Shown in pieces: positions 35,082 to 61,013 of a DNA stretch of 64,000 nt. The notes below the pieces were generated by a model. That model made no database searches, was not told the origin of the DNA, and saw nothing but the letters and a program-made list of their open reading frames with translations. Origin of the DNA: Pseudoalteromonas tunicata. Lineage in GTDB: Bacteria; Pseudomonadota; Gammaproteobacteria; Enterobacterales; Alteromonadaceae. The stretch is taken from assembly GCF_002310815.1 (NCBI RefSeq), contig NZ_CP011033.1, positions 372,001-436,000 on the forward strand, read 5' to 3'. Position numbers and translations under genes: made by a program. How positions within the stretch are numbered: position 1 is the first letter of the stretch; every line of letters begins with the position of its first letter.

Positions 35082-35290
35082 AGTGTCCCCTTATTATTTT
35101 ATATTTAATCTGGTCTGATGAGTTTAGCATCCAAAGTGAACAAAAAGCCATGCTCGAATTTAGCCTATTTTATCGAGTGCTTATTTTTGTTAAACGTGGC
35201 CATCTTTGTCATATTCTGGTTCAGGAACATCACCGTTTTAAGGCATAATAATAGATAGAAATGCGATAGGTGCTTACAAAAGAGATAAAA

Positions 35291-36424
35291 ATGCGAACAA
35301 AGTGGGATATTTTTTGTTGTGTTGTTGATAACTTTGGCGACATTGGTGTGACGTGGCGTTTAGCAAAACAATTAGTGGCAGAGCAAAATGTTGATGTGTG
35401 TTTATGGGTTGATGAATTAGATGCTTTTGCCCGTATTTGCCCGCAGGCCAATGCTCATTTAACAATGCAAGTACAGCAAGGTGTGACGATTCGCAAGTGG
35501 CCTGCGAACTGGCAAGCGTGTGATGCGGCCGATGTGGTGATTGAAGCTTTTGCGTGTGAATTACCAAAAGACTATATCCAAGCGATGGCGCTGCGAGAAA
35601 AACCATCGTTATGGCTTAATTTAGAATATTTAAGTGCAGAGCCTTGGGTTGAAGGTTGCCATGGTCTGCCATCTTTGCAATCAAATGGTTTACAAAAATA
35701 TTTTTTCTTTCCAGGATTTACGCCTAAGACAGGCGGTCTTTTTAAAGAGCAAGATTTAATTTTACAGCGCGATCGGTTTTTGAGTCACCCTGATTATCGT
35801 GCGCAGTTTTTACAGCAATTAGGTGTCGAGGTTAAAGATGATACGTTGTTAATCTCGCTCTTTGCTTATGAAAATGACAGCTTAGCCAGTTGGCTAAACT
35901 GTTTAGCCAATGGCGATGAATCGGTGCATTTATTAGTGCCTGAAGGACGTGTCATTCCGCAAATAAAAGCATTTTTAGGGCTCGAGGAACTCCGAGTTGG
36001 CGGCATTTATCAACGAGGGCAATTAACTGTTCAAATGATTGCGTTTATGAGCCAAGAGCAATATGACCAATTGCTTTGGAGCTGTGACTTCAATGCTGTA
36101 CGAGGTGAAGATTCATTTTTGCGTGCTCAATGGGCTGGTAAACCTTTTATGTGGCATATTTATCCGCAAGAAGAAGAGGCACACATCCCAAAATTAGACG
36201 CTTTTTTGGCACTTTATTGTCCAAACTTAGCATTGTCACACCAAATGGCGTTAAACGACATGTGGCGTCAGTGGAATATTGGTGAAGATATAAGCAATAA
36301 TTGGCTTACATTACGGGAAAATTGGCCACAAGTGTCAAAACATAGCAATAATTGGTGCGAACATCAGGCAAAACAAACAAATATTGCCCAAGCTCTGGCA
36401 CTGTTTTATTTAAATTGGTTATAA
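35291..36424 (+). CDS. earP: EF-P arginine rhamnosyltransferase EarP
   Basis: A 377-residue GT104 glycosyltransferase that transfers rhamnose from dTDP-rhamnose to arginine 32 of EF-P. The start at 35291 (MRTKWDIF) is supported by numbering: catalytic D13 and D17 fall in [10 protein letters not shown], and E273 in RGEDSF, the positions known for EarP. Also visible are [23 protein letters not shown] and [15 protein letters not shown]. It sits 47 bases upstream of efp in the same direction, the usual arrangement. A GTG start 21 bases upstream is possible but unnecessary. Confidence 0.95.
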
Positions 36425-50126: not shown

Positions 50127-50698
50127 AGGCCTACCAATTTAAATTACTGACGATTGGCTTATAAGTAATTCTTTTAATTGCTAATGTAAAACTACTTTGC
50201 ATGATAAGTATAATCTGATTTCCGTTAAACCCCTCCCTAAAACAGTTTATTATCCAACGCTAATTGGTCAAAATACACTCAATTAACGTTACGTATAGTG
50301 AGTTAATTTCGAGAGTATTCAGGTGCTAATATCAGCAAGTTTACCCAACCAATATGTCAATTAAAGCATCATTAAAATAGCGAGTTTAAACAGCTATTTT
50401 TTGACTAAATGTTCATGGGCTATTAACAGTTTATGAGGCGTTTATATCTTAAATTGATATTTTTAATGTGTGGTTGTCAGAGATAAAGCACAGCGGAAAT
50501 GTATAAATTTAATTTTTTGTTCCTTTTTATAGAGCTTTTAAGTCTTGGTTTATTGTAAAATACAAATTAATGCGATGTAGCAGTCAGGTTTTTATCTTTA
50601 ATCAGCTTGCCTGTCACGTTATAAAAAACGCAAGGTTAAATCGCAGTTATTGTTGAGTGTTTTTAATACATATTAATAAAAATTATAAAAAGGATGTG
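50127..50698. other. Gap between decayed genes and yqiJ
   Basis: About 570 AT-rich bases with no supported gene. Short frames exist (for example a 19-codon hydrophobic frame at 50499) but lack coding signs. It must hold the yqiJ promoter. No insertion-sequence end was recognised. Confidence 0.5.
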
Positions 50699-51349
50699 AT
50701 GTGTATGATGGAATTTATGCTGGCAGATTTTAATCTGCTTTTTAGCTGCGCAATTTTCTTTGTTTTTATATTGTTACTTATCGAAGGCTTAGGGTTAATT
50801 ATTGGTTTTAGTTTAATGAATGCGTTAGATCAGTTAACTGGATTTGATTTAGACGCAGATATTGACTTAACCGCTGGCGGATTGACCTCATTATTAGGCT
50901 GGTTATGTTTAAACCGCTTACCAATGCTTATTTGGTTAGTACTTTTTCTCAGTAGTTTTGGTATTTTTGGTTACAGCATCAATTATTTTAGTACCCTTAT
51001 TTTTGAAACGTCTCTTGCAAGTTATTTGGTTGTGAGTAGTGCGTTGATCATAACTGTTTATTTTATAAAACTAGTTGCGGCACCCTTAACGAAGATATTG
51101 CCAAAAAATGAAAGCTCTGCAATTTCAAATCATAGTTTTGTCGGGAAACTGGCAAAAATTACTCAAGGTAAAGCCAGCTTTCAAAATCCAACCGAGGCTG
51201 TACTTCAAGATGAATACCATCAAAAACACTATTTATTAGTGGCGCCACAAAGCAAAGACGAAATTTTTATTGAAGGAACTGAAGTTGTTTTAGTAGAAAA
51301 AAATGAAAACTATTGGCTTGGTATAGCCTTTAATCAAAATCTAAAATAG
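50699..51349 (+). CDS. yqiJ: YqiJ-family OB-fold membrane protein, flotillin partner
   Basis: A 216-residue protein. The start at 50699 has AAGGA five bases upstream (ATG at 50705 is also possible). The N-terminal half has three to four membrane helices (about residues 8-36, 66-92 and 96-120); the C-terminal 75 residues form an OB-fold (FVGKLAKITQGKASFQNPTEAVL, HYLLVAPQSKDEIFIEGTEVVLV). It precedes the flotillin gene by 11 bases. In E. coli the YqiJ/YqiK pair forms flotillin-type membrane cages; the role is inferred from that. Confidence 0.88.
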   Translation: MCMMEFMLADFNLLFSCAIFFVFILLLIEGLGLIIGFSLMNALDQLTGFDLDADIDLTAGGLTSLLGWLCLNRLPMLIWLVLFLSSFGIFGYSINYFSTLIFETSLASYLVVSSALIITVYFIKLVAAPLTKILPKNESSAISNHSFVGKLAKITQGKASFQNPTEAVLQDEYHQKHYLLVAPQSKDEIFIEGTEVVLVEKNENYWLGIAFNQNLK

Positions 51350-51360
51350 GGAAGAAAAAT

Positions 51361-53127
51361 ATGGATTTAAATAACCTCACTTTTATTTTAACTGTGACGG
51401 GGATCGGTTTAGTCGCCTTGCTCACAATCGGTTTTATATTTGCAAAATTATATGTCAGAGCCAGTAAAGAAGTCGCTTTCGTTCGTACTGGTTTAGGCGG
51501 TGAAAAAGTAGTTAAAGATGGTGGCGCAATTTGTTTGCCGGTTTTGCATGAGACTATCCCAGTTAATATGAATACACTTCGTATTGAAGTTGAAAAAATG
51601 CAAAAAAATGCACTAATCACCAAAGATAGAATGCGTGTTGATGTGAAAGCCGATTTCTATTTGCGTGTTGCACCGCATATCGAAGGTATTTCGATGGCAG
51701 CACAAACCCTTGGTACGCGTACCATGCGTGTGGATGAATTAAAGAAATTAATGGAATCAAAATTTGTCGACGTGCTTCGTGCTGTTGCCGCCGAAATGAC
51801 CATGATTGAAATGCATGAGCAACGTGCTGAATTTGTGCAAAAGGTACAGCAAAACGTTGCTAATGATCTTGAAAAAAATGGTTTACAACTTGAGTCAGTA
51901 TCGTTGACGGGTTTTGATCAGACTGATCTTGAATTTTTTAATGAAAATAATGCCTTTGATGCTGAAGGTCGTGCAAGACTTGCCAAGATAATTGAAGAAA
52001 AACGTAAAGAAACCAATGATATTGAGCAAGAAAATCGCGTTAAAATTGAGCGTAGAAATCTAGAAGCTGAACAGCAATCACTCGAAATTAAAAAAGAAGC
52101 AGAAGAAGCTCGTTTGTCTCAAGAACAAGTAGTTGAATTTAGACGTGCCCAGCAAAAAGCTGAGATTGCCGTGACCCGTGAACAACGCGCAAAAGAAGAA
52201 CGCGAAGCGGAAATTGCGAAAGAACAAGCCATTGAAGCGGCACAAATTGGTAAAGCTCAAGGTATTGAATTACTTGAAATTGCAAAGAAAAATGCGCTAG
52301 ACCAAGCCTCAATTAAACAAAAACGTGACATTGAAGTCGCAGAACAAGAAAAACACATCGCAATTGCTATCAAGTCTGAAGAAGAGTCTGCGGCACGTGC
52401 AAAAGCAGCGCAAGCTGAAAAAATTCGTGTTGAAAAAGAAGAGGAAGTGATCACTGCCCGTTCTGTGGCCCAAGCAAATCGTCAAAAAGAAATTGAAGTC
52501 ATTGATGCGAAAAAAGAAGCAGAACGTGATGCGGTAAGTATTACGGTGCAAGCGGCATCTGAAAAAAGTGCTGCAGAAGACCGCGCGAGTGCGGTATTAA
52601 TTCAAGCCCGTGCCGATGCTAATGCGAAAGTTCTTCGCGCTGAAGCGGATGAAAAAATATATGCGGTAGAAGCAGCTGGTAAAGAAGCACTCTATCAAGC
52701 TGAGAATTGCTTAAGCTCAGAGCAAATTGAATTACAAAAAACCTTAGCCATGTTAAAAGCCCTCCCTGAGATTATTGCAAAGGCTGTGAAACCGCTTGAA
52801 AATATCGACAGCATTAAAATTTTGCAAGGTTATGGTGCGGGTCAAACTGGCAATGGCCACAGTGCTGCCGCCAATTCATCAGGCATTGCTGAACAAGTGA
52901 CCAATGCGGCATTAAATTATCGTGCTAACGCGCCACTGATTGATTCAATGCTGCGCGAGCTTGGTTTAGTTGATAATAATAAAGGGACTTTGGTCGATTT
53001 ACTCAATGGCGATCATACCCTAGCCCAACAGTTTAATAAGGCCACACAGCAGCCTGAGCTACTGTCTAATGACGTGTCAGACGACGTTGAAAAGCACGTT
53101 CAGGCTGATCTAAAAGAGCACGTATAA
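51361..53127 (+). CDS. yqiK: Flotillin-like protein YqiK
   Basis: A 588-residue flotillin. One membrane helix (about residues 7-30) at the N-terminus, an SPFH/Band-7 domain (about 35-200: VAFVRTGLGGEKVVKDGG, KDRMRVDVKADFYLRVAP), and a very long charged coiled coil (200-460) rich in Glu, Lys, Ala and Arg. The last 100 residues include an alanine/glycine region (YGAGQTGNGHSA) and a globular tail. It forms membrane-scaffold microdomains in homologues. It is co-transcribed with yqiJ. Confidence 0.95.
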   Translation: MDLNNLTFILTVTGIGLVALLTIGFIFAKLYVRASKEVAFVRTGLGGEKVVKDGGAICLPVLHETIPVNMNTLRIEVEKMQKNALITKDRMRVDVKADFYLRVAPHIEGISMAAQTLGTRTMRVDELKKLMESKFVDVLRAVAAEMTMIEMHEQRAEFVQKVQQNVANDLEKNGLQLESVSLTGFDQTDLEFFNENNAFDAEGRARLAKIIEEKRKETNDIEQENRVKIERRNLEAEQQSLEIKKEAEEARLSQEQVVEFRRAQQKAEIAVTREQRAKEEREAEIAKEQAIEAAQIGKAQGIELLEIAKKNALDQASIKQKRDIEVAEQEKHIAIAIKSEEESAARAKAAQAEKIRVEKEEEVITARSVAQANRQKEIEVIDAKKEAERDAVSITVQAASEKSAAEDRASAVLIQARADANAKVLRAEADEKIYAVEAAGKEALYQAENCLSSEQIELQKTLAMLKALPEIIAKAVKPLENIDSIKILQGYGAGQTGNGHSAAANSSGIAEQVTNAALNYRANAPLIDSMLRELGLVDNNKGTLVDLLNGDHTLAQQFNKATQQPELLSNDVSDDVEKHVQADLKEHV

Positions 53128-53291: not shown

Positions 53292-53522
53292 TTGCCTGTG
53301 GCACACCATATCGAGTCAGATAGCACAGGTGTTTTATTATCAGAAGTGGGTCCTAATACGCTTTGTTTTACCTATGTTCGAATTGGGCTACTGCATGAAA
53401 AGTTAGGCAATCAAGAGCAAGCCGCTATTGCGTTTAGCCAAGCAATCAAAAGCAACAGTGGGAACGCAGAGCTATCAGTGTTAAAAGCCTCAGTATTAAA
53501 GCTTGATGAAAAAGCAGCCTAG
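53292..53522 (+). pseudogene. C-terminal TPR-protein fragment
   Basis: A 76-codon frame bounded upstream by a stop at 53274. It encodes one TPR-like repeat (RIGLLHEKLGNQEQAAIAFSQAIK) and part of another. It lacks a plausible start and is preceded by TGTAGTGGTCAACTAATT (53242-53259), which resembles the end of an IS3-like element. It looks like the remaining 3' end of a larger TPR gene cut by a mobile element. Confidence 0.6.
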
Positions 53523-53556
53523 ATTTTGCCATAGGCTGCAGCATTATCTTTAAAAT

Positions 53557-54705
53557 TTAAGCAATATTGGCCTCTGATCCGAGCAATGTTTGGCTATGAG
53601 GACGCGTGACAGGGCAAAAGTGCAATAGAATTTGGCTCATTTCATGGATACGACGTGCAAAACTCGCTTTTTCAGCACGCTCATTAATGGTGTGATCGCC
53701 ATCGCCATAAGGGCCAAATCCATCAAGTGTGACTAATCCGGCTGCGGCCATGGTATTGGCGTCACTGACACCACCGCGTGCTTCGGTCTGAAACGGATAA
53801 CCAATGATATCGCCAATCAAGGTAACTAACTCGGTTTGCCCTTTGGTTGGCGCCATAACATCACGTTGTACCCCACCAGAAATGGCCACTTCGATGCCTT
53901 CTATAAGCGGGTTATCAACAAGGTGAGCAATGCTTTCGAGCAAGCGCAGTTTTTCGTATGCACAAGTAAAACGGGCTTCAACAATTAACTGCGCACTCGG
54001 TGAGATGGTATTGGCGCCAATCCCACCACTCATTTTGCCCACGTTAACAGTAGTATTTTGGCTTAAATCAGTCAATTCGGTCAGTTCAATTAGCATCTTA
54101 GCTGCCGCTAAATTAGCATTAATTCCCGCTTGATAATGATTACCTGCATGGGCGGCTTTGCCGGTGATATCTATAGTAAAGGTGGCAACCCCTTTGCGGG
54201 CGGTGACAATTTCATGATTTTTACCTGCGGCTTCAAAAACAAAACAATAATCATAGTTTTTAGCGAGTTTACTCGATAGTTGTTTGCTGTCATCGCTGCC
54301 CGTTTCTTCATCGCTTACAAGTAGCATATCGATATTAATAATGTCACCAAGCAAGGTTTTGACTTTACGAAGTGCGTTTAAGGCAACAAAGTTACCACCT
54401 TTCATATCACACACTCCTGGGCCATAGACCCACTGTGCATCTTCACTAAAGTGGCAGAATGTTCCTTGCGGGAAAACGGTATCAAGATGACCTAATAATA
54501 AGATTTTTTTGCCCAAACGTTTTGGTGAACTAAATAATAGGTGGTTGCCAATGTGCTCACGCGCAAACGTTTGGCAGCTAAAACCAAGCGGTTGCATCCA
54601 TGCTTTAAAAATTTCAGCGTTTTCATCAATACCGGTTTTGTTTTTACTGTGAGAGTTACAATTAACCATTTTTGCCAGTTCAGAAAAATCGATACCATTA
54701 CTCAT
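53557..54705 (-). CDS. M20-family metallopeptidase (CPG2-like)
   Basis: A 382-residue cytosolic zinc peptidase of the M20A/M20F type. Metal ligands and catalytic residues: H in GHLDTVF, D in CDMKGG, E-E in SDEETGS, and H in GDGDHTINERA; the lid domain follows around GKAAHAGNHYQAG. No signal peptide. The closest functional models are glutamate carboxypeptidase CPG2 and aminoacylases, which remove C-terminal or acyl-linked residues. It is divergent, with a 200-base gap, from two ATP-grasp ligases, so it may undo an amide they make. Confidence 0.9.
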   Translation of the reverse strand: MSNGIDFSELAKMVNCNSHSKNKTGIDENAEIFKAWMQPLGFSCQTFAREHIGNHLLFSSPKRLGKKILLLGHLDTVFPQGTFCHFSEDAQWVYGPGVCDMKGGNFVALNALRKVKTLLGDIINIDMLLVSDEETGSDDSKQLSSKLAKNYDYCFVFEAAGKNHEIVTARKGVATFTIDITGKAAHAGNHYQAGINANLAAAKMLIELTELTDLSQNTTVNVGKMSGGIGANTISPSAQLIVEARFTCAYEKLRLLESIAHLVDNPLIEGIEVAISGGVQRDVMAPTKGQTELVTLIGDIIGYPFQTEARGGVSDANTMAAAGLVTLDGFGPYGDGDHTINERAEKASFARRIHEMSQILLHFCPVTRPHSQTLLGSEANIA

Positions 54706-54905
54706 TTTATAGCCTTCCTTAGGGGATGTTATTGCAGTGTGCTTGCATAGTTAAGTACAACTATTTAAACGGCGAGTTGCAGTTTCGTGACCGTTTTATT
54801 AAGTCTTTTGTTGTACATATTTTCGTCAATCTACTGTCACAATCCTGTCCTTTAATAGAAGGCCTAAGCAGTTAATGAATTGAACACAGATAAAGGGAAT
54901 GAGGA

Positions 54906-55829
54906 ATGACAACAGCAAATGTTGGCCTGTGGTTATATGAAAATAGCGGCGGTGCACAAATTGAAGCTAAGATGATAAACGCACTTAAAGAGCGCAATAT
55001 CATGTGTTTTAACAACCTAAATTTACGAGATGCCTATGCCCGAGATGGCAAAATTATCTGTAATGGGATGGTGATGGAAGAGTTAGATTTATTCTTGAGT
55101 TACAACGCAGGACAGCAGTCTCAATTTCAAGTGTATTTGTATGAAGCCATTAGCCGCAGTATTCCTACTATTAATAATTACCCTGCATTTGCGTTATCTG
55201 AAGATAAATTTAAAACCTCTTATTTACTTAATAATCATGGTATTGCAACTGCTGATTATCGTCTTTGCCATAAAAACGATATGGAAGGCCTTAAACTTGC
55301 GATGCGAGAATGGGGTGGGCGGGTGATTTATAAACCCACCGATGGCTGGGGTGGTGCAGGCATTGTTAAAATTGAAGGCGAACATGCCCTCGATATGCTG
55401 GTGCCGTTTTTGAGCCGCACTGATCTGCGTTATTTTTATCTCGAACGTTTTATTGATTATGACAATACCGATTATCGCGTTGATATTGTTGATGGTCAGT
55501 ATATTGGCTGTTATGGCCGCAAAGCCCCTAAAGATGATTGGAAAACCAATATTACCAGTGGTGGGAGTGTATTTTTACGTGAACCGTGTGATGAAGTGGT
55601 GCAGCTTGCCATTAAAGCGGCTGCGGTTAGTGGGCTTGAAATTGCAGGTGTCGATATCATTTATGATCGCGAAAAAGAGCAATTTGTAGTGCTTGAAATT
55701 AACGGTATTCCAGCCTTTGCCACCCCAGAGCAAGAGCAAATGGGGCTTAATTTTAATCAGAAAAAAATAGATGCCATTGTTAACTTGATTGATCGCACCG
55801 TGCATCTTGCACACGCTAAGGTGGCCTAA
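54906..55829 (+). CDS. ATP-grasp ligase 1, RimK-like
   Basis: A 307-residue ATP-grasp enzyme that joins a carboxylate and an amine using ATP. The N-terminal preATP-grasp part (1-90) has NSGGAQIEAKMINAL; the grasp proper spans about 95-300 with VIYKPTDGWGGAGIVKIEG (ATP phosphate loop), LERFIDYDNTDYRVDIVDG and the metal site VLEINGIPAF. It is about the size of RimK/LysX-type amino-acid ligases. GGAATGAGGA precedes the ATG. The next ligase begins one base after its stop codon. Confidence 0.9.
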   Translation: MTTANVGLWLYENSGGAQIEAKMINALKERNIMCFNNLNLRDAYARDGKIICNGMVMEELDLFLSYNAGQQSQFQVYLYEAISRSIPTINNYPAFALSEDKFKTSYLLNNHGIATADYRLCHKNDMEGLKLAMREWGGRVIYKPTDGWGGAGIVKIEGEHALDMLVPFLSRTDLRYFYLERFIDYDNTDYRVDIVDGQYIGCYGRKAPKDDWKTNITSGGSVFLREPCDEVVQLAIKAAAVSGLEIAGVDIIYDREKEQFVVLEINGIPAFATPEQEQMGLNFNQKKIDAIVNLIDRTVHLAHAKVA

Positions 55830-57209
55830 GTGAACAGTAGCAATAGAGCGCTCCCTAAGTTGGGTTTTTTATATTTAAATCACGTTATGCGGTTTTTCGA
55901 TAAATCGAATTTTAAAGGCTGGCCCGACAAAATAGAGCAAGTTACCTACCGTTGGGGGAAAGATAAACAGCGTTTTATTAATGAAATCAAAGCAAAAAAA
56001 ATAGAGGTGCTGATCGGCAATATTCCAGCAACGGCGTACGAAACATTTCGTGAAATCGCAAAAGCGCTGCCGAATGTCGAATTTGTGCCTTCACTTGATG
56101 CGCAGTTTGCCAATAAATCGAAAGAAAATGTCACCCATTTTTGCAATAAATATGATTTACCGACCCCAGCAACCAGCATTTTTTATGTGCCACAACGCGC
56201 CGAGCATTATTTAAAAAGCGCTCAGTATCCAAAAATTATTAAACGCTCGTTTGGCCCATCTAATTATGGCGGCTATTTTGTCCATAAAGTCGATAGCTAT
56301 GCGCAGGCGAGCGCATTACTTAATAAACGCAAATATTATCCGGTTTATGTGCAAGATTTTGTGCCAATGGAAGCGGATATTCGCGTAATGCTGATTGGCC
56401 ACAAACCCGTTTGTGCTTTTTGGCGCCGCCCACCAGAGGGCGAATGGCTGACCAATACCAGCCAAGGTGGCAGTATGGATTATCAAAATGTGCCAAAACG
56501 TGTGCTTGATTTAGCGGTAAAAACATCAAAAGCTGCCAAGGCTGAGTATTGGGCGTGTGATATTGCACTGGGTAAAAATGGCCAAGTGTATATTTTGGAA
56601 TGTGCCACCGCGTTTGCAGCTTTTCCGTATATTCGAGATTGGATTGGCCAATATTTAATGTGGAAATACTCAGCTGGTCTGTTTAAAAAACCGCACATTC
56701 CGATGTGGAATTGGGAAGAGCTTGGCAAAATTAACCCTTTGTTATTGCGCACAATGCGCCATATCAGTTTTGGCCACTATAGCCCAAGTAATGACAGTAA
56801 CGAGTTGTTTAACCAATGTGATGAGCAGGGTTATCCACTTGTGTCTTTTACCCAAAATAGTCAAGAAGAATGGCCAAGTGATGTCTGGAATTTTCAAGAT
56901 AATTTTGCTCGCCCAGCCGTAATAGAACAAGTTGGCCAAGATGAAAGTGTGCCAATAAGCTCTGCGTTAGTACCCATTAAAAGTGATGATAAAACCGCGC
57001 TCACCCATTTAAGTTTGATGAGTTTTTTTACCGGTATTAAAGGCATAGGTGAAAAAATGGCGCATGAAATTATTCAAACGCTGGGTATTAAAGGTGTTGT
57101 AGAGGCGTTGACGCATCAGCCTGAAAAACTGTGTGAAGTAAAAAATGTGAAAGCAAAAAAATTGGCGTTAATTACCAGTCATTGGCAGCAATTTAGTCAA
57201 ACGTTATAA
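55830..57209 (+). CDS. ATP-grasp ligase 2 fused to a RecD2-type HhH domain
   Basis: A 459-residue protein with a GTG start directly after ligase 1. Residues 1-300 are an ATP-grasp fold: RSFGPSNYGGYFVHK (P-loop-like), YVQDFVPMEADIRVMLIG, and YILECATAFAAFP for Mg-binding. Residues 300-385 are a poorly conserved linker. Residues 395-455 are a tandem helix-hairpin-helix: GIKGIGEKMAHEIIQTLGIKG then EKLCEVKNVKAKKLALI, closest to the N-terminal HhH of RecD2. The combination is unusual. HhH domains contact DNA backbone or ribosomal RNA, so the ligase may be recruited to nucleic acid or a DNA-bound protein. Confidence 0.88.
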   Translation: MNSSNRALPKLGFLYLNHVMRFFDKSNFKGWPDKIEQVTYRWGKDKQRFINEIKAKKIEVLIGNIPATAYETFREIAKALPNVEFVPSLDAQFANKSKENVTHFCNKYDLPTPATSIFYVPQRAEHYLKSAQYPKIIKRSFGPSNYGGYFVHKVDSYAQASALLNKRKYYPVYVQDFVPMEADIRVMLIGHKPVCAFWRRPPEGEWLTNTSQGGSMDYQNVPKRVLDLAVKTSKAAKAEYWACDIALGKNGQVYILECATAFAAFPYIRDWIGQYLMWKYSAGLFKKPHIPMWNWEELGKINPLLLRTMRHISFGHYSPSNDSNELFNQCDEQGYPLVSFTQNSQEEWPSDVWNFQDNFARPAVIEQVGQDESVPISSALVPIKSDDKTALTHLSLMSFFTGIKGIGEKMAHEIIQTLGIKGVVEALTHQPEKLCEVKNVKAKKLALITSHWQQFSQTL

Positions 57210-57281
57210 ATTTGTTGTGGGCCAAAGCGCGCATGTTACTTTGGTCTGCTGCTTTTTTAGCTCAATAAAAAGGCACCATCG

Positions 57282-59960
57282 ATGAAAATCCAGTACGCAT
57301 CTTATCAAGAAACGTTATCTTTTTTACAACAAGCGATGAGCGAACACCCCCACCTAATTCGGCTGCAAAGCATTGGTGATACATGGGAAAAAAGGCCTAT
57401 TATGTTAGCCACGGTATCCCTTGATGTCGCTTATGCGGATCAAAAACCGGCCTTACTTTATACCGGCACCATTCATGCTCGCGAATGGATTGGCAATGAG
57501 TTAGCCATTAAGTTTGTAAAATATATTATTGAAAATTATCGCTTTAATCCAAAGCTGATGAACGCACTCACTCGCAATACCTTGTACATAGTACCGTGTT
57601 TAAATCCTGATGGATTTGAATATTCACGCAATCATTTTTCGTTTTGGCGAAAAAACCGCAGAGACAACGGCGATGGTACCTTTGGTGTTGACCTTAACCG
57701 TAATTTTGATTCGAATTTTCGTAAAAACCCCGACACTAACAGCAATACGTATCCAGGACCCGCTCCTTTTTCGGAGCCCGAAACACAAGCAATAAAAGCG
57801 TTTGTTGAGCTGCATCCTAATATTACTGTTTCACTAGATTACCACTCACAAGGTAACGTGTTTTTTCCTGCGCATAAATTTAATCATGAAGTCGAAATTG
57901 AAGGCACAGACTTAAATGTATTGTGCGCCAATATGAATGCCGAAATTAAAAAAGTAACGGGTCGGCAATATGGTATTCATCGTGGCAAGCCACCGGCTAA
58001 TTTAATTCGTGGCAGTGGCCGCGAATACTATTATGCCAAAGGAATTTTAGCTGTGGTGGTTGAGGTCGGCACACAGAATATTCCCGATTATATGCAAAAT
58101 ATGGCGCAAAGCGTGGCCGAAAATATTCCCGCACTAATTTATGCTTTAGGCGAAGCTATTAACTATTCGAGCCTTGCGCCTAAACGGGTTGAGGGGTTTA
58201 CCATTTCGTCGATTGCGATGCATAGTGTCAGCCTTGAATGGCGTTATCAGGCTAATGTTGATGTTTATTTTGAAATTTATCGCAGTGAACGTAATAAAAA
58301 TACCTGTAATGAACAAACGTTAGTGGCCATTACCAAGTCGACTTTTTTTACTGATGTGCAACTTAAAAGTGGCCAGCACTACTTTTATAACATTCGTGCG
58401 GTTGATAAAGTGACGAAAATCAAGTCACCGTTTAGTCCGGAAATTCGCTTAAAAACTCAGTTGGCCAACGATGAATTTTCACTGACTGTATTTGCTAGCA
58501 AAACCGATGTCGGGTATCTCGGTGAAAACTACACAGCCAAAAATAAAGAACATTTTGGTTATAACTCAATGTTTATTGGTGTAAATATCAAGCGTGGTAT
58601 TTGTTATGGCTTGGTGCGTTTTGATTTAACTCAGCTGCCATCTAACGCAGCGCTGCGCAGTGCCAGTTTTTCGCTTTATCCGATGAATCGTGTGGGGGCT
58701 AAGGTCGAAAAATATGGCCATTGGTCAATTGATATTATCGATAATGATGCGCTTGATGATATTTATGATTATCAAAAAGTGAAAAATGCTAAAAGCTTAT
58801 TCAGCCTAGGTTACACCATAGAATCAGATAAAATGACCCAAGGTATTTGGAGTAAATGGCGCTTTAATGGTGTTGAGCGTACAGGGCTGCAAGCGTATTT
58901 GAACCGGCAAAAACAAAGCGGTAAATCGTGGCTTATTTTACGTTTAAAAGGGCCAACAACTTTACCCCTTGGCAGTGATTCTCAAATGATGCAGTTTGAT
59001 ATTGGGTATGGCCCATTTGGCAGTGGTTTGCATTATCGTCCCTCCCTTGAGCTTATTTACACAAAATCAGAGCAGATGTTAACTTTAGTGCCCGAAGTCT
59101 TACATACTATTTATCCTGAACATGTGGTGGCAAACAAGTTGGCGTCGGGGTTTGATGAGCATGGCTTAATTGTGTATGGTCAGATGGCCTTTTCGAGCCA
59201 AAGTTTGCCAGCACCTGATACAACAGTGATCACTCAAGCGTATTTGCAGCTTAATAATAGTAATAAATTAACGACTAACAAAGATATACGTTTTACGATT
59301 GAGTTGGTTGAGCTTAACGATGTTAACTATGTCAGTGTTAAACAGCGAGAGAAAATCGAATACATAGGCTATGAAATTAGCCATGAGCAACTGGCCGATA
59401 AAAATAGTCAGCATTTTATTTTCGATAGTTATTCGCGCCAAGCTCTCGAGCGCCTTCATAGTGAAAACAAACCGTTTTATTTTATTATTCGTGCCACCGC
59501 AGCCTCAAAAGCCAATAACTTACTGATTGATTGGTATCCTGCAGGCCATGCATTACAAGCAAAATTAGTGATCCATACCATTTCACGGCGTAAATATCCC
59601 CTTGCGACACCTACTGATTTTACCCTTACCAATGAGGCCAAGCAGCTAAAACTGAGTTGGAAAAACCCAGATCATGCTGATTTTGTAGGCACATTTGTGG
59701 TGCGTAATCGCTTTCATCCTCCAAAGTCACCTTTTGATGGGGTAAAACTTTATGCAGGAAAAGATGAATATACCTATGATCGCTTTGGTCATGAGCATAT
59801 CGCTAAATATTATTCGGTATTTAGTTATGATGATGTACCAAATTATTCAGCTCCGACCTCGTTATATTACTCAAATAACCAAGTGATCAGCATGGATGAA
59901 TTAAATGATGATTTACCCTCCGAGATTGAAGACGAAGATATGTTTTTAGGGGACGATTAA
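57282..59960 (+). CDS. M14-family zinc carboxypeptidase with Fn3-like and DNRLRE-like modules
   Basis: An 892-residue protein. Residues 1-290 are an M14 metallocarboxypeptidase: zinc ligands H65 and E68 (HAREW), H188 (YHSQG), catalytic E261 (VVEVGTQN), with NPDGFEYS and GVDLNRNF. Residues 300-390 look like an Fn3 domain, 395-600 and 605-770 are two DNRLRE-type beta modules (RGICYGLVRFDL, SASFSLYPMN), then another Fn3-like domain (774-860) and an acidic tail (EIEDEDMFLGDD). No signal peptide is seen, so it is cytosolic or exported by an unknown route. It follows ligase 2 by 72 bases. Confidence 0.88.
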   Translation: MKIQYASYQETLSFLQQAMSEHPHLIRLQSIGDTWEKRPIMLATVSLDVAYADQKPALLYTGTIHAREWIGNELAIKFVKYIIENYRFNPKLMNALTRNTLYIVPCLNPDGFEYSRNHFSFWRKNRRDNGDGTFGVDLNRNFDSNFRKNPDTNSNTYPGPAPFSEPETQAIKAFVELHPNITVSLDYHSQGNVFFPAHKFNHEVEIEGTDLNVLCANMNAEIKKVTGRQYGIHRGKPPANLIRGSGREYYYAKGILAVVVEVGTQNIPDYMQNMAQSVAENIPALIYALGEAINYSSLAPKRVEGFTISSIAMHSVSLEWRYQANVDVYFEIYRSERNKNTCNEQTLVAITKSTFFTDVQLKSGQHYFYNIRAVDKVTKIKSPFSPEIRLKTQLANDEFSLTVFASKTDVGYLGENYTAKNKEHFGYNSMFIGVNIKRGICYGLVRFDLTQLPSNAALRSASFSLYPMNRVGAKVEKYGHWSIDIIDNDALDDIYDYQKVKNAKSLFSLGYTIESDKMTQGIWSKWRFNGVERTGLQAYLNRQKQSGKSWLILRLKGPTTLPLGSDSQMMQFDIGYGPFGSGLHYRPSLELIYTKSEQMLTLVPEVLHTIYPEHVVANKLASGFDEHGLIVYGQMAFSSQSLPAPDTTVITQAYLQLNNSNKLTTNKDIRFTIELVELNDVNYVSVKQREKIEYIGYEISHEQLADKNSQHFIFDSYSRQALERLHSENKPFYFIIRATAASKANNLLIDWYPAGHALQAKLVIHTISRRKYPLATPTDFTLTNEAKQLKLSWKNPDHADFVGTFVVRNRFHPPKSPFDGVKLYAGKDEYTYDRFGHEHIAKYYSVFSYDDVPNYSAPTSLYYSNNQVISMDELNDDLPSEIEDEDMFLGDD

Positions 59961-59966
59961 GCGATA

Positions 59967-59996
59967 GACCACAGCCATAATGAGTGGACTGTGGTC
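59967..59996. terminator. Bidirectional terminator between carboxypeptidase and desaturase
   Basis: GACCACAG (59967-59974) and CTGTGGTC (59989-59996) form an eight-base stem between convergent genes; A-rich and T-rich flanks on either side. It is seven bases after the carboxypeptidase stop. Confidence 0.75.
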
Positions 59997-60011
59997 AAAA
60001 TTAAGAGCGGC

Positions 60012-61013
60012 TTAATTAGACGTATGGTGGTAATAATTGGCTTGTTTAAGGCTTGCCAAATCGTTGTGATGCACGCCGTTTTTGAGCATCACCGGAATAA
60101 TTTTGTTACTGATCCATTGGCGAATATAAAACGGCTGGTTTGGAATAAAATGGTGAATGGTATGGGTATGACCAAAATTAAAGCAAAACCATTGAAAAGG
60201 CGCAAAAAGCCAGTGATTAAGCACATAGGTTTGTTGTAATACGTTAGTCACACCACCATAGTAATGCATGGAAGAGGTCACAAAATTTAAGCAGGCAGAG
60301 CGAACAATATTAGGTGCAATCAAGACCACCATTAAAAAATTAACCCAATCCATTATGCCAAGCAAATAGGTAGGGTAAACAAGTTGTCCCGCGGTGACAA
60401 AATCAACTGCATGAAAAACAATAAAACTGTAGAGCACGACAAAGTAACTGGTGGTAATAGGAAAGCCCGCATTAAACACCTTTAAAAAGTGAAAGCCTTT
60501 AATTTCAGCGCTAAAGCGCTTTTGAAAAATCAACAAACCCAGCAAGCCATCAACAATCACAATAAAACGCAGCAGCGGGTTTTTAATGCCATTGCCGACT
60601 AATCGCTCTTCTAAGTCTTGATGGGTACCCGATACTTTGTGATGGTTTAAATGCATCACGCGCCGTGCCCACGGATTAATGGTATTGGGGCGCATTAGCC
60701 ATACAACCAACATCATCAGGTTATGCATGATTGGTTGTTTATTAAAATATTGTTTATGAATTAAGTCGTGCTCAAGCTCATGAGAAATCGAGGCGAAAAA
60801 AGCCGCTAATACAATGGTGAGCCACGCCGGAATAAGTGCCAGAGAATATAAAAAACCAACGCCCACCATCGCAGATAAAGACACCACCAATAAGGTCAGT
60901 GCAATGGTATTTTGATGGGCCAAAAGAGGATGACGTGCTCGCAGCAGTTGTTCTTCTTTTTTTATCGCTTTGACGATAGTTTGAATGCGTTGATTGCTTG
61001 ATGAAGAATTCAT
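60012..61013 (-). CDS. Membrane fatty-acid desaturase family protein
   Basis: A 333-residue, four-helix membrane protein with the three histidine clusters of desaturases/hydroxylases: HELEH (H78, H82), HLNHH (H121, H124, H125) and HTHTIHH (H284, H287, H288). These bind a di-iron centre that inserts a double bond or hydroxyl into an acyl chain. It is small for the family but complete. It faces the carboxypeptidase tail to tail, so its membership in that cluster is uncertain. No electron-transfer partner is adjacent. Confidence 0.88.
   Translation of the reverse strand: MNSSSSNQRIQTIVKAIKKEEQLLRARHPLLAHQNTIALTLLVVSLSAMVGVGFLYSLALIPAWLTIVLAAFFASISHELEHDLIHKQYFNKQPIMHNLMMLVVWLMRPNTINPWARRVMHLNHHKVSGTHQDLEERLVGNGIKNPLLRFIVIVDGLLGLLIFQKRFSAEIKGFHFLKVFNAGFPITTSYFVVLYSFIVFHAVDFVTAGQLVYPTYLLGIMDWVNFLMVVLIAPNIVRSACLNFVTSSMHYYGGVTNVLQQTYVLNHWLFAPFQWFCFNFGHTHTIHHFIPNQPFYIRQWISNKIIPVMLKNGVHHNDLASLKQANYYHHTSN

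What the first reader, a model, noticed from the sequence alone, without database searches (positions are those of the whole stretch)
53557..59960. M20 peptidase / two ATP-grasp ligases / M14 carboxypeptidase: candidate undescribed amide-ligation system
Two adjacent ATP-grasp enzymes (one base apart), a downstream carboxypeptidase of M14 type and a divergent M20 peptidase form a compact set able to make and break amide bonds, all apparently cytosolic. Ligase-hydrolase sets exist for peptide tags and for protein C-terminal tailing, but this combination with an HhH-tailed ligase and a modular 892-residue carboxypeptidase does not match a pathway I can name. No precursor peptide was seen in the gaps.
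Basis: inference. Interest (0 to 1): 0.74.

Follow-up and report, generated by a model that had tools for sequence, protein, structure and literature searches.

The report
Mobile four-gene acidic amide-bond cassette
Four adjacent genes in a marine bacterium, two enzymes that join amino acids on and two that clip them off, travel together as one unit between distant marine bacteria and probably build and trim an unidentified glutamate- or aspartate-tailed product.

Summary
A divergent M20 peptidase (CPG2-like), two abutting RimK-type ATP-grasp ligases and an 892-aa M14 carboxypeptidase lie at the stated coordinates. They are one unit: of 60 relatives, the same 16 genomes hold close orthologues of all four and 44 hold none. 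Of 81 loci with ligase 2, 74 show all four in one order and orientation; of the other seven, three end at contig edges, three have M14 elsewhere in the genome, one lacks M20. Neighbours are unrelated; the tree suggests transfer between families. Catalytic residues are invariant, except that ligase 2 has E-x-A for E-x-N throughout. The M14 residue aligned with position 255 is Arg in 69 of 69, as in acid-cleaving carboxypeptidase O. I read this as a cytosolic, mobile glutamate/aspartate ligation-and-trimming cassette with an unknown acceptor. It failed membership in the named pathways I tested. The HhH tail is optional (73 of 81), so it says little about DNA or ribosomes.

The parts
53557..54705 (-). 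M20 metallopeptidase, carboxypeptidase G2-like, divergently oriented; predicted to release an acidic residue from an amide
   Evidence: Pfam M20 and M20_dimer; nearest solved structure CPG2 1cg2, E 1.1e-29; H73, D100, E133, E134, E158, R310, H338 invariant in 72 of 72 long members
54706..54905 (.). 200-bp divergent intergenic region between M20 and ligase 1; presumed shared control region
   Evidence: coordinates; median gap 147 bp in 76 loci, range -50 to 1526; promoter-like sites in 53300-60300 are no more than chance, 19 found, 19.2 expected
54906..55829 (+). Ligase 1: RimK-type ATP-grasp ligase
   Evidence: Pfam RimK; best NCBIfam model MptN 121.8 bits, below its cut-off of 350; K143, R191, N215, E264 and N266 in 78 of 78
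55830..57209 (+). Ligase 2: RimK/ArgX/LysX-fold ATP-grasp ligase with C-terminal HhH tail; E-x-A in place of E-x-N
57006..57197 (+). helix-hairpin-helix tail of ligase 2 (residues 393-456), after a low-confidence linker
   Evidence: AlphaFold block pLDDT 93-97; present in 73 of 81 relatives; DUF1643 in its place in L086 and L101
57282..59960 (+). M14 carboxypeptidase, 892 aa: catalytic domain (1-297), then beta-rich C-terminal modules (FN3-like and DNRLRE-like), acidic tail
58020..58022 (+). codon for M14 Arg247, aligned with bovine CPA1 residue 255 (S1' specificity position; numbering of the CPA4 sequence recalled)
   Evidence: alignments; Arg in 69 of 69; Arg255 gives acidic specificity in CPO (PMC9925722, passages)

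Best explanation
A self-contained, horizontally mobile cassette for acidic amide chemistry in the cytosol. The two RimK-type ligases use ATP to attach glutamate (or aspartate), one residue or a short tail, to an acceptor that is not encoded in the cassette. Ligase 1 and ligase 2 probably do successive or different couplings. The M14 enzyme, with Arg at the specificity position, removes C-terminal acidic residues, and the CPG2-like M20 enzyme releases the last or a differently linked acidic residue, so the product's tail length or amount is set and reversed. Shown: the unit, its conservation, its patchy spread, and intact catalytic residues (with the E-x-A deviation in ligase 2). Inferred: acidic specificity (sequence position and relatives only), cytosolic location, horizontal transfer. 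Not known: the acceptor, and whether it is a metabolite, a peptide or a protein C-terminus.
For: All-or-none presence, 16 of 60 relatives. Fixed order in 73 of 81 loci by ORF, 74 with tblastn. M14 matches elsewhere in the genome in 3 of 3 loci that lack it beside the ligases (one partial, residues 433-864 at 44%). Pairwise distances of the four proteins correlate, r 0.83-0.89 over 65 loci. M14 Arg at position 255 in 69 of 69, plus H233, R234 and K236 invariant nearby, with the CPO precedent. M20's nearest solved relative is CPG2 (that CPG2 releases glutamate is recalled). Ligase 1 scores best against glutamate-ligase models, MptN and the RimK family, below cut-offs; ligase 2 folds like RimK and ArgX. 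No signal-peptide-like start: K-x-Q-Y follows the first residue in 30 of 30 aligned M14s (rows whose picked ORF began further upstream were left out of that alignment, but show the same motif inside).
Against: No substrate was identified. The Arg255 assignment needs a one-residue gap before the catalytic Glu, and the model has low confidence around it (residues 235-243 and 263-273 under pLDDT 50). CPA Tyr248 has no conserved equivalent (position 240 varies). One genome (L075) has no M20 that the search found. FN3/DNRLRE-like modules are usual in secreted proteins (recalled), which sits oddly with a cytosolic enzyme. Ligase 2's E-x-A leaves its activity unproved.
Confidence: 0.5

Rival explanations
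1. A small-molecule pathway in which all four enzymes are biosynthetic or salvage steps: an acidic-tailed cofactor or osmolyte-like amide is built by the ligases and recycled by the hydrolases, for example a polyglutamate tail on a pterin or another cofactor.
For: Ligase 1's best NCBIfam model is MptN, a pterin glutamate ligase; the M20 enzyme is closest to CPG2 (folate substrate recalled).
Against: MptN score is far below cut-off (121.8 against 350). No recurring cofactor gene beside it: neighbours fall into 74 clusters, and the 20 scanned show none.
Confidence: 0.2
2. Protein C-terminal tailing: the ligases add an acidic tail to a protein (as RimK does to ribosomal S6) and M14/M20 remove it.
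For: RimK fold; RimK-RimB is a ligase-protease pair (PMC12239564, passages); cytosolic M14 enzymes with acidic specificity modify tubulin (PMC6214572, passages), and a bacterial one with a lysine in S1' is proposed to act on acidic substrates (PMC3940198, passages).
Against: The host already has two genes above the curated RimK cut-off. No target protein was found.
Confidence: 0.15
3. A nucleic-acid-linked modification: ligase 2's HhH tail binds DNA or RNA and an amino acid is attached to a base or tRNA.
For: HhH in 73 of 81 members; weak hits of the tail to RecD2 and ribosomal S13 models; cassette next to a mutM-like gene in 23 loci and an nth-like gene in 5 (names by eye).
Against: The tail is absent from 8 of 81; the mutM and nth neighbours look like one insertion each in one lineage; two exopeptidases do not suit a nucleobase amide.
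Confidence: 0.07
4. A ribosomally made, ATP-grasp-crosslinked peptide (graspetide-like) with an unlinked precursor.
For: Two ATP-grasp enzymes side by side, and peptidases nearby; weak hit of ligase 2 to TIGR04187 (24.7 bits, cut-off 350).
Against: Far below cut-off; no small frame in or just after the cassette is shared beyond one lineage (ten largest groups printed); no recurring transporter among the neighbours scanned.
Confidence: 0.05
5. A carrier-protein pathway like LysW/LysX/LysK.
For: LysX/ArgX fold of ligase 2 and an M20-type hydrolase.
Against: No LysW match in the genome, while the search rang in 4 of 14 controls; no kinase, reductase or aminotransferase in the cassette.
Confidence: 0.03

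Closest known systems
RimK-RimB (and RimA) ribosomal S6 glutamylation system
   Same: RimK-fold ligase paired with a protease; acidic residue addition (PMC12239564, passages)
   Different: Here two ligases and two metallo-exopeptidases, no retropepsin; the host has two separate genes above the RimK cut-off
Rlo operon (RloA retropepsin, RloB, RloC ATP-grasp)
   Same: ATP-grasp protein with a protease in one locus, full mechanism unknown (PMC12239564, passages)
   Different: Rlo protease is secreted and of another family; the RloB membrane protein has no counterpart among the four genes
LysX/ArgX-LysW-LysK amino-group carrier pathway
   Same: Ligase fold of ligase 2; M20-type hydrolase
   Different: No LysW match and no intermediate enzymes in the cassette
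Carboxypeptidase O (M14A, acid-specific)
   Different: CPO is a GPI-anchored animal enzyme of the secretory pathway (PMC6214572, passages); here a modular enzyme without a visible export signal
Carboxypeptidase G2 (M20)
   Same: Nearest solved relative of the M20 protein, metal ligands aligned (ligand identities recalled)
   Different: Substrate here unknown

Membership tests
RimK (ribosomal S6 glutamate ligase, NF007764) | score over the curated cut-off of 331 bits | tested here: not met
   ligase 1 46.1 bits, ligase 2 20.9 bits; two other host genes pass
RimK-fold ATP-grasp ligases | RimK-type ATP-grasp domain or fold | tested here: met
MptN glutamate ligase (NF040720) | score over the cut-off of 350 bits | tested here: not met
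   ligase 1 121.8 bits, ligase 2 68.1 bits
LysW-type carrier pathway | a LysW carrier protein in the genome | tested here: not met
   no match in the own genome; 4 of 14 controls rang
Graspetide (TIGR04187-type) maturase | score over the cut-off of 350 bits | tested here: not met
   ligase 2 24.7 bits
Graspetide (TIGR04187-type) maturase | linked precursor peptide | tested here: inconclusive
   no small frame shared beyond one lineage in the gaps and 400 bp downstream; the rest of the genome was not searched
M14 zinc carboxypeptidase | zinc ligands and equivalents of CPA Arg127, Asn144, Arg145 and Glu270 | tested here: met
   H65, E68, H188, R123, R126, N139, R140, E261 in 69 of 69; equivalences by alignment, CPA roles partly from PMC3940198 passages, zinc ligands recalled
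Acid-specific M14 (CPO-like) | basic residue at bovine CPA1 position 255 | tested here: met
   R247 in 69 of 69 by sequence alignment; activity not tested
CPG2-like M20 | metal ligands and catalytic Glu | tested here: met
   72 of 72, aligned to 1cg2; roles recalled
Known anti-phage defence system (PADLOC) | match to a PADLOC model | tested here: not met
   0 families for 4 proteins at E up to 0.1
Rlo or RimB systems | retropepsin protease in the locus | tested here: not met
   the four genes are M20, two ATP-grasp and M14; neighbours vary, 20 of 74 clusters scanned

The most novel reading that the evidence does not exclude
An undescribed, self-sufficient and horizontally spread pathway of marine bacteria that makes and reversibly trims a new class of acidic-tailed product, with its own ligase pair and its own acid-specific exopeptidases, kept as one unit across Gammaproteobacteria and Campylobacterota.
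Probability: 0.45. Interest if true: 0.78.

Novelty: new variant of a known kind. Interest (0 to 1): 0.62.

Why it matters
A four-enzyme unit this strictly kept together, in unrelated genomic places and across two phyla, points to one product that marine bacteria repeatedly acquire. If the acidic chemistry is right, it gives a small, testable system for how bacteria write and erase glutamate or aspartate tails, and a source of two ligases and two matched exopeptidases. The acceptor can be sought by comparing metabolites and proteins of cassette-positive and cassette-negative strains of one genus.

Tried and rejected
Independent assortment of the four genes: rejected. Chance neighbours: rejected. 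Phage or defence origin: no PADLOC match, no pattern match in viral contigs (close relatives only), only partial ATP-grasp matches at 22-23% identity in 16 cyanophage records, and one plasmid record, a 2.1-Mb Photobacterium replicon. Carrier-protein pathway: no LysW. A recurring linked transporter or regulator: none recurred in 20 neighbour representatives scanned of 74 clusters, nor in 17 cluster representatives printed and read by eye (names such as MutM and Nth are my reading, from no family search). Linked precursor peptide: no small frame shared beyond one lineage. Shared promoter: pattern scan at chance level. DUF1643 in the host: no match, but no control rang either, so uninformative. 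Residue-level structural check of Arg255: not possible, as no coordinates are returned. Ligase 1 was not modelled, both folding jobs having gone to ligase 2 and M14. Papers: ten searches, all that the cap allows. Five were for the gene set, one for M14 with DNRLRE (61), three for comparators (37 CPO, 43 CPG2, 67 LysX/ArgX), one for DUF1643 (74). No listed title or abstract start describes this cassette; the library holds open-licence papers only. A class-wide search found ligase 2 at E 1e-30 or better in 1 of 369 genomes, the own one, so breadth comes from the genome-contig scan, which kept the best 80 of 138; several of the 80 are near-copies.

Rows dropped before counts: the residue counts use only long members (A1 78, A2 81, M20 72, M14 69 of 81 loci). 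The tree uses ligase 1, ligase 2 and M20 of 51 of 71 loci after removing near-copies. L060's ligase 1 was missed by my ORF picking and found by tblastn, so ligase 1 is present in 80 of 81, the one miss (L102) being a contig edge. M20 is not in 4 of 81 loci: three are contig edges (L090, whose genome has an M20 at 60% on another contig; L098; L102) and one is L075. The search of a 60-relative set reports many weaker paralogues; the best of them in cassette-free genomes are E 1.8e-47 (M20), 1.9e-21 (M14), 9.6e-15 (ligase 1) and 3.0e-6 (ligase 2), and one short M14 stretch reaches 43% identity over 69 residues (the list is cut).
Full report
What is there. One search places four genes at 53557-59960: a divergent M20 peptidase (382 aa, - strand) and, on the + strand, ligase 1 (307 aa), ligase 2 (459 aa, GTG start directly after the ligase 1 stop) and an M14 carboxypeptidase (892 aa). 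Pfam gives Peptidase_M20 with M20_dimer, RimK, RimK, and Peptidase_M14. The HhH tail of ligase 2 is a sub-threshold Pfam match (20.4 bits, cut-off 27), yet AlphaFold models residues 393-456 as confident helices. The window lies on the 980-kb second contig of a 4.96-Mb, two-contig genome. The nearest named proteins are from Motilimonas and Pseudoalteromonas. The host is Pseudoalteromonas by inference: same-genus genomes G005 and G034 have contigs of the same length as the matching records of Pseudoalteromonas sp. H105 and P. denitrificans.

Is it a unit? Searches of the same 60 relatives with each protein give the same 16 genomes with close orthologues of all four (58% identity or more) and no close orthologue of any in the other 44. 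Paralogues in those 44 are far weaker: best E 1.8e-47 for M20 at 36%, 1.9e-21 for M14, 9.6e-15 for ligase 1 and 3.0e-6 for ligase 2; one short M14 stretch reaches 43% over 69 residues. Fifteen of the 16, the own genome included, are in the same genus (15 of 36) and one is outside it (1 of 24). A scan of genome contigs with ligase 2 kept the best 80 of 138 loci. With the window, 73 of 81 loci show all four genes in the order M20(-), ligase 1(+), ligase 2(+), M14(+); tblastn adds L060, making 74. The other seven: L090, L098 and L102 end at contig edges; L085, L092 and L096 have no M14 beside the ligases, but each of their genomes has an M14 match elsewhere (in L092's genome a partial one at 44% over residues 433-864); L075 has no M20 beside the ligases, and none was found in that genome, a metagenome bin. 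So each of the 81 loci, or its genome, has an M14 match, some partial.

Surroundings and spread. The nearest genes of 100 aa or more on either side fall into 74 clusters. Twenty representatives scanned with Pfam show no recurring theme: transporters, sensor kinases, peptidases, a nucleotidyl transferase, polyphosphate kinase and others. A mutM-like gene borders it in 23 loci and an nth-like gene in 5 (names by my reading of the printed sequences), each within one lineage, which I read as single insertions. The tree of ligase 1, ligase 2 and M20 (51 rows, FastTree, midpoint root) puts Motilimonas inside the group of Pseudoalteromonas that holds the window, Veronia (Vibrionaceae) beside Pseudoalteromonas and away from Photobacterium, Shewanella marina inside Photobacterium, and the Campylobacterota beside Cycloclasticus. 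I infer horizontal transfer of the unit; no formal test of transfer was made. Pairwise distances of the four proteins correlate at r 0.83-0.89 over 65 loci, which fits joint travel but also reflects shared relatedness. Ligase 2 was found in 1 of 369 class-wide genomes, the own one, so the cassette is rare and patchy.

Are the enzymes intact? Ligase 1: K143, R191, W212, N215, E264 and N266 in 78 of 78. Ligase 2: K138, R185, N209, D244 and E257 in 81 of 81, with A259 in place of the Asn of the E-x-N motif, also 81 of 81 (the usual form is visible in ligase 1 and in the RimK and ArgX sequences). M20: H73, D100, E133, E134, E158, R310 and H338 in 72 of 72, aligned to CPG2. M14: H65, E68, H188, R123, R126, N139, R140 and E261 in 69 of 69. 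The deviation in ligase 2 may or may not matter; PurK-type enzymes also lack that Asn (recalled).

What chemistry? The M14 residue aligned with bovine CPA1 255 is Arg247 (numbering of the CPA4 sequence recalled). Two alignments agree: HMMER against CPA4, and a MAFFT alignment bridged by nine other M14 proteins. It is Arg in 69 of 69. Passages of PMC9925722 state that residue 255 sets specificity, that CPO's Arg255 gives acidic specificity, and also that pocket size and shape matter besides this residue; passages of PMC3940198 infer acidic specificity from a lysine in a bacterial enzyme. Against this: one gap is needed before the catalytic Glu, the model is of low confidence there, and the Tyr248 equivalent is not conserved. 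The M20 enzyme is nearest to CPG2. Ligase 1 scores best against MptN and the RimK family, both below cut-off. Ligase 2 folds like RimK, ArgX and LysX. Together these point to Glu or Asp as the group moved; this is inference.

How it probably works. The ligases add acidic residues to an acceptor made elsewhere in the cell; M14 trims acidic C-termini; M20 releases a further acidic residue, perhaps of another linkage. Cytosolic location is inferred from the M14 start, which runs straight into the catalytic domain in the 30 rows aligned; no signal-peptide program was available. M14's beta-rich C-terminal modules are unexplained. No small frame in the gaps or just downstream is shared beyond one lineage, so the acceptor is probably not a linked peptide.

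Comparison with known systems. Ligase-hydrolase loci are known: RimK-RimB and the Rlo operon (PMC12239564, passages). This cassette differs in its protease families, its paired ligases and its mobility. It fails the tests for RimK proper, MptN and graspetide maturases, LysW pathways and PADLOC systems. The host keeps two genes above the RimK cut-off besides it. Five paper searches for the gene set, one for M14 with DNRLRE (61), three for comparators and one for DUF1643 (74) listed no title or abstract start that describes this cassette, in an open-licence library only.

Verdict. Its hints toward ribosome or DNA are weak, because the HhH tail is missing from 8 of 81 members, two of which carry DUF1643 instead.

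Noticed in passing
L086:10475-12121 and L101:6610-8223: In two uncultured Cycloclasticus loci ligase 2 ends in a DUF1643 domain (E 1e-38 and 2e-32) where others have the HhH tail.
   Followed up: partly
L085:11936-12709 and loci with mutM-like or nth-like genes next to the cassette: DNA-repair-like genes border the cassette in several lineages (mutM-like in 23 loci, nth-like in 5, exonuclease III-like in 1; names by eye from printed sequences); probably single insertions.
   Followed up: partly
50657-53127: YqiJ-family membrane protein followed by a flotillin, upstream of the cassette.
   Followed up: no
H1: NZ_CP119424.1, 1695435-1696838: Ligase 2 at 58% on a 2.1-Mb Photobacterium sp. DA100 record, with no annotated feature under the match (the gene table is incomplete).
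   Followed up: no
35270-36424: EarP, EF-P rhamnosyltransferase.
   Followed up: no
L060 and L064: The M14 gene reads as two frames; not studied further.
   Followed up: no
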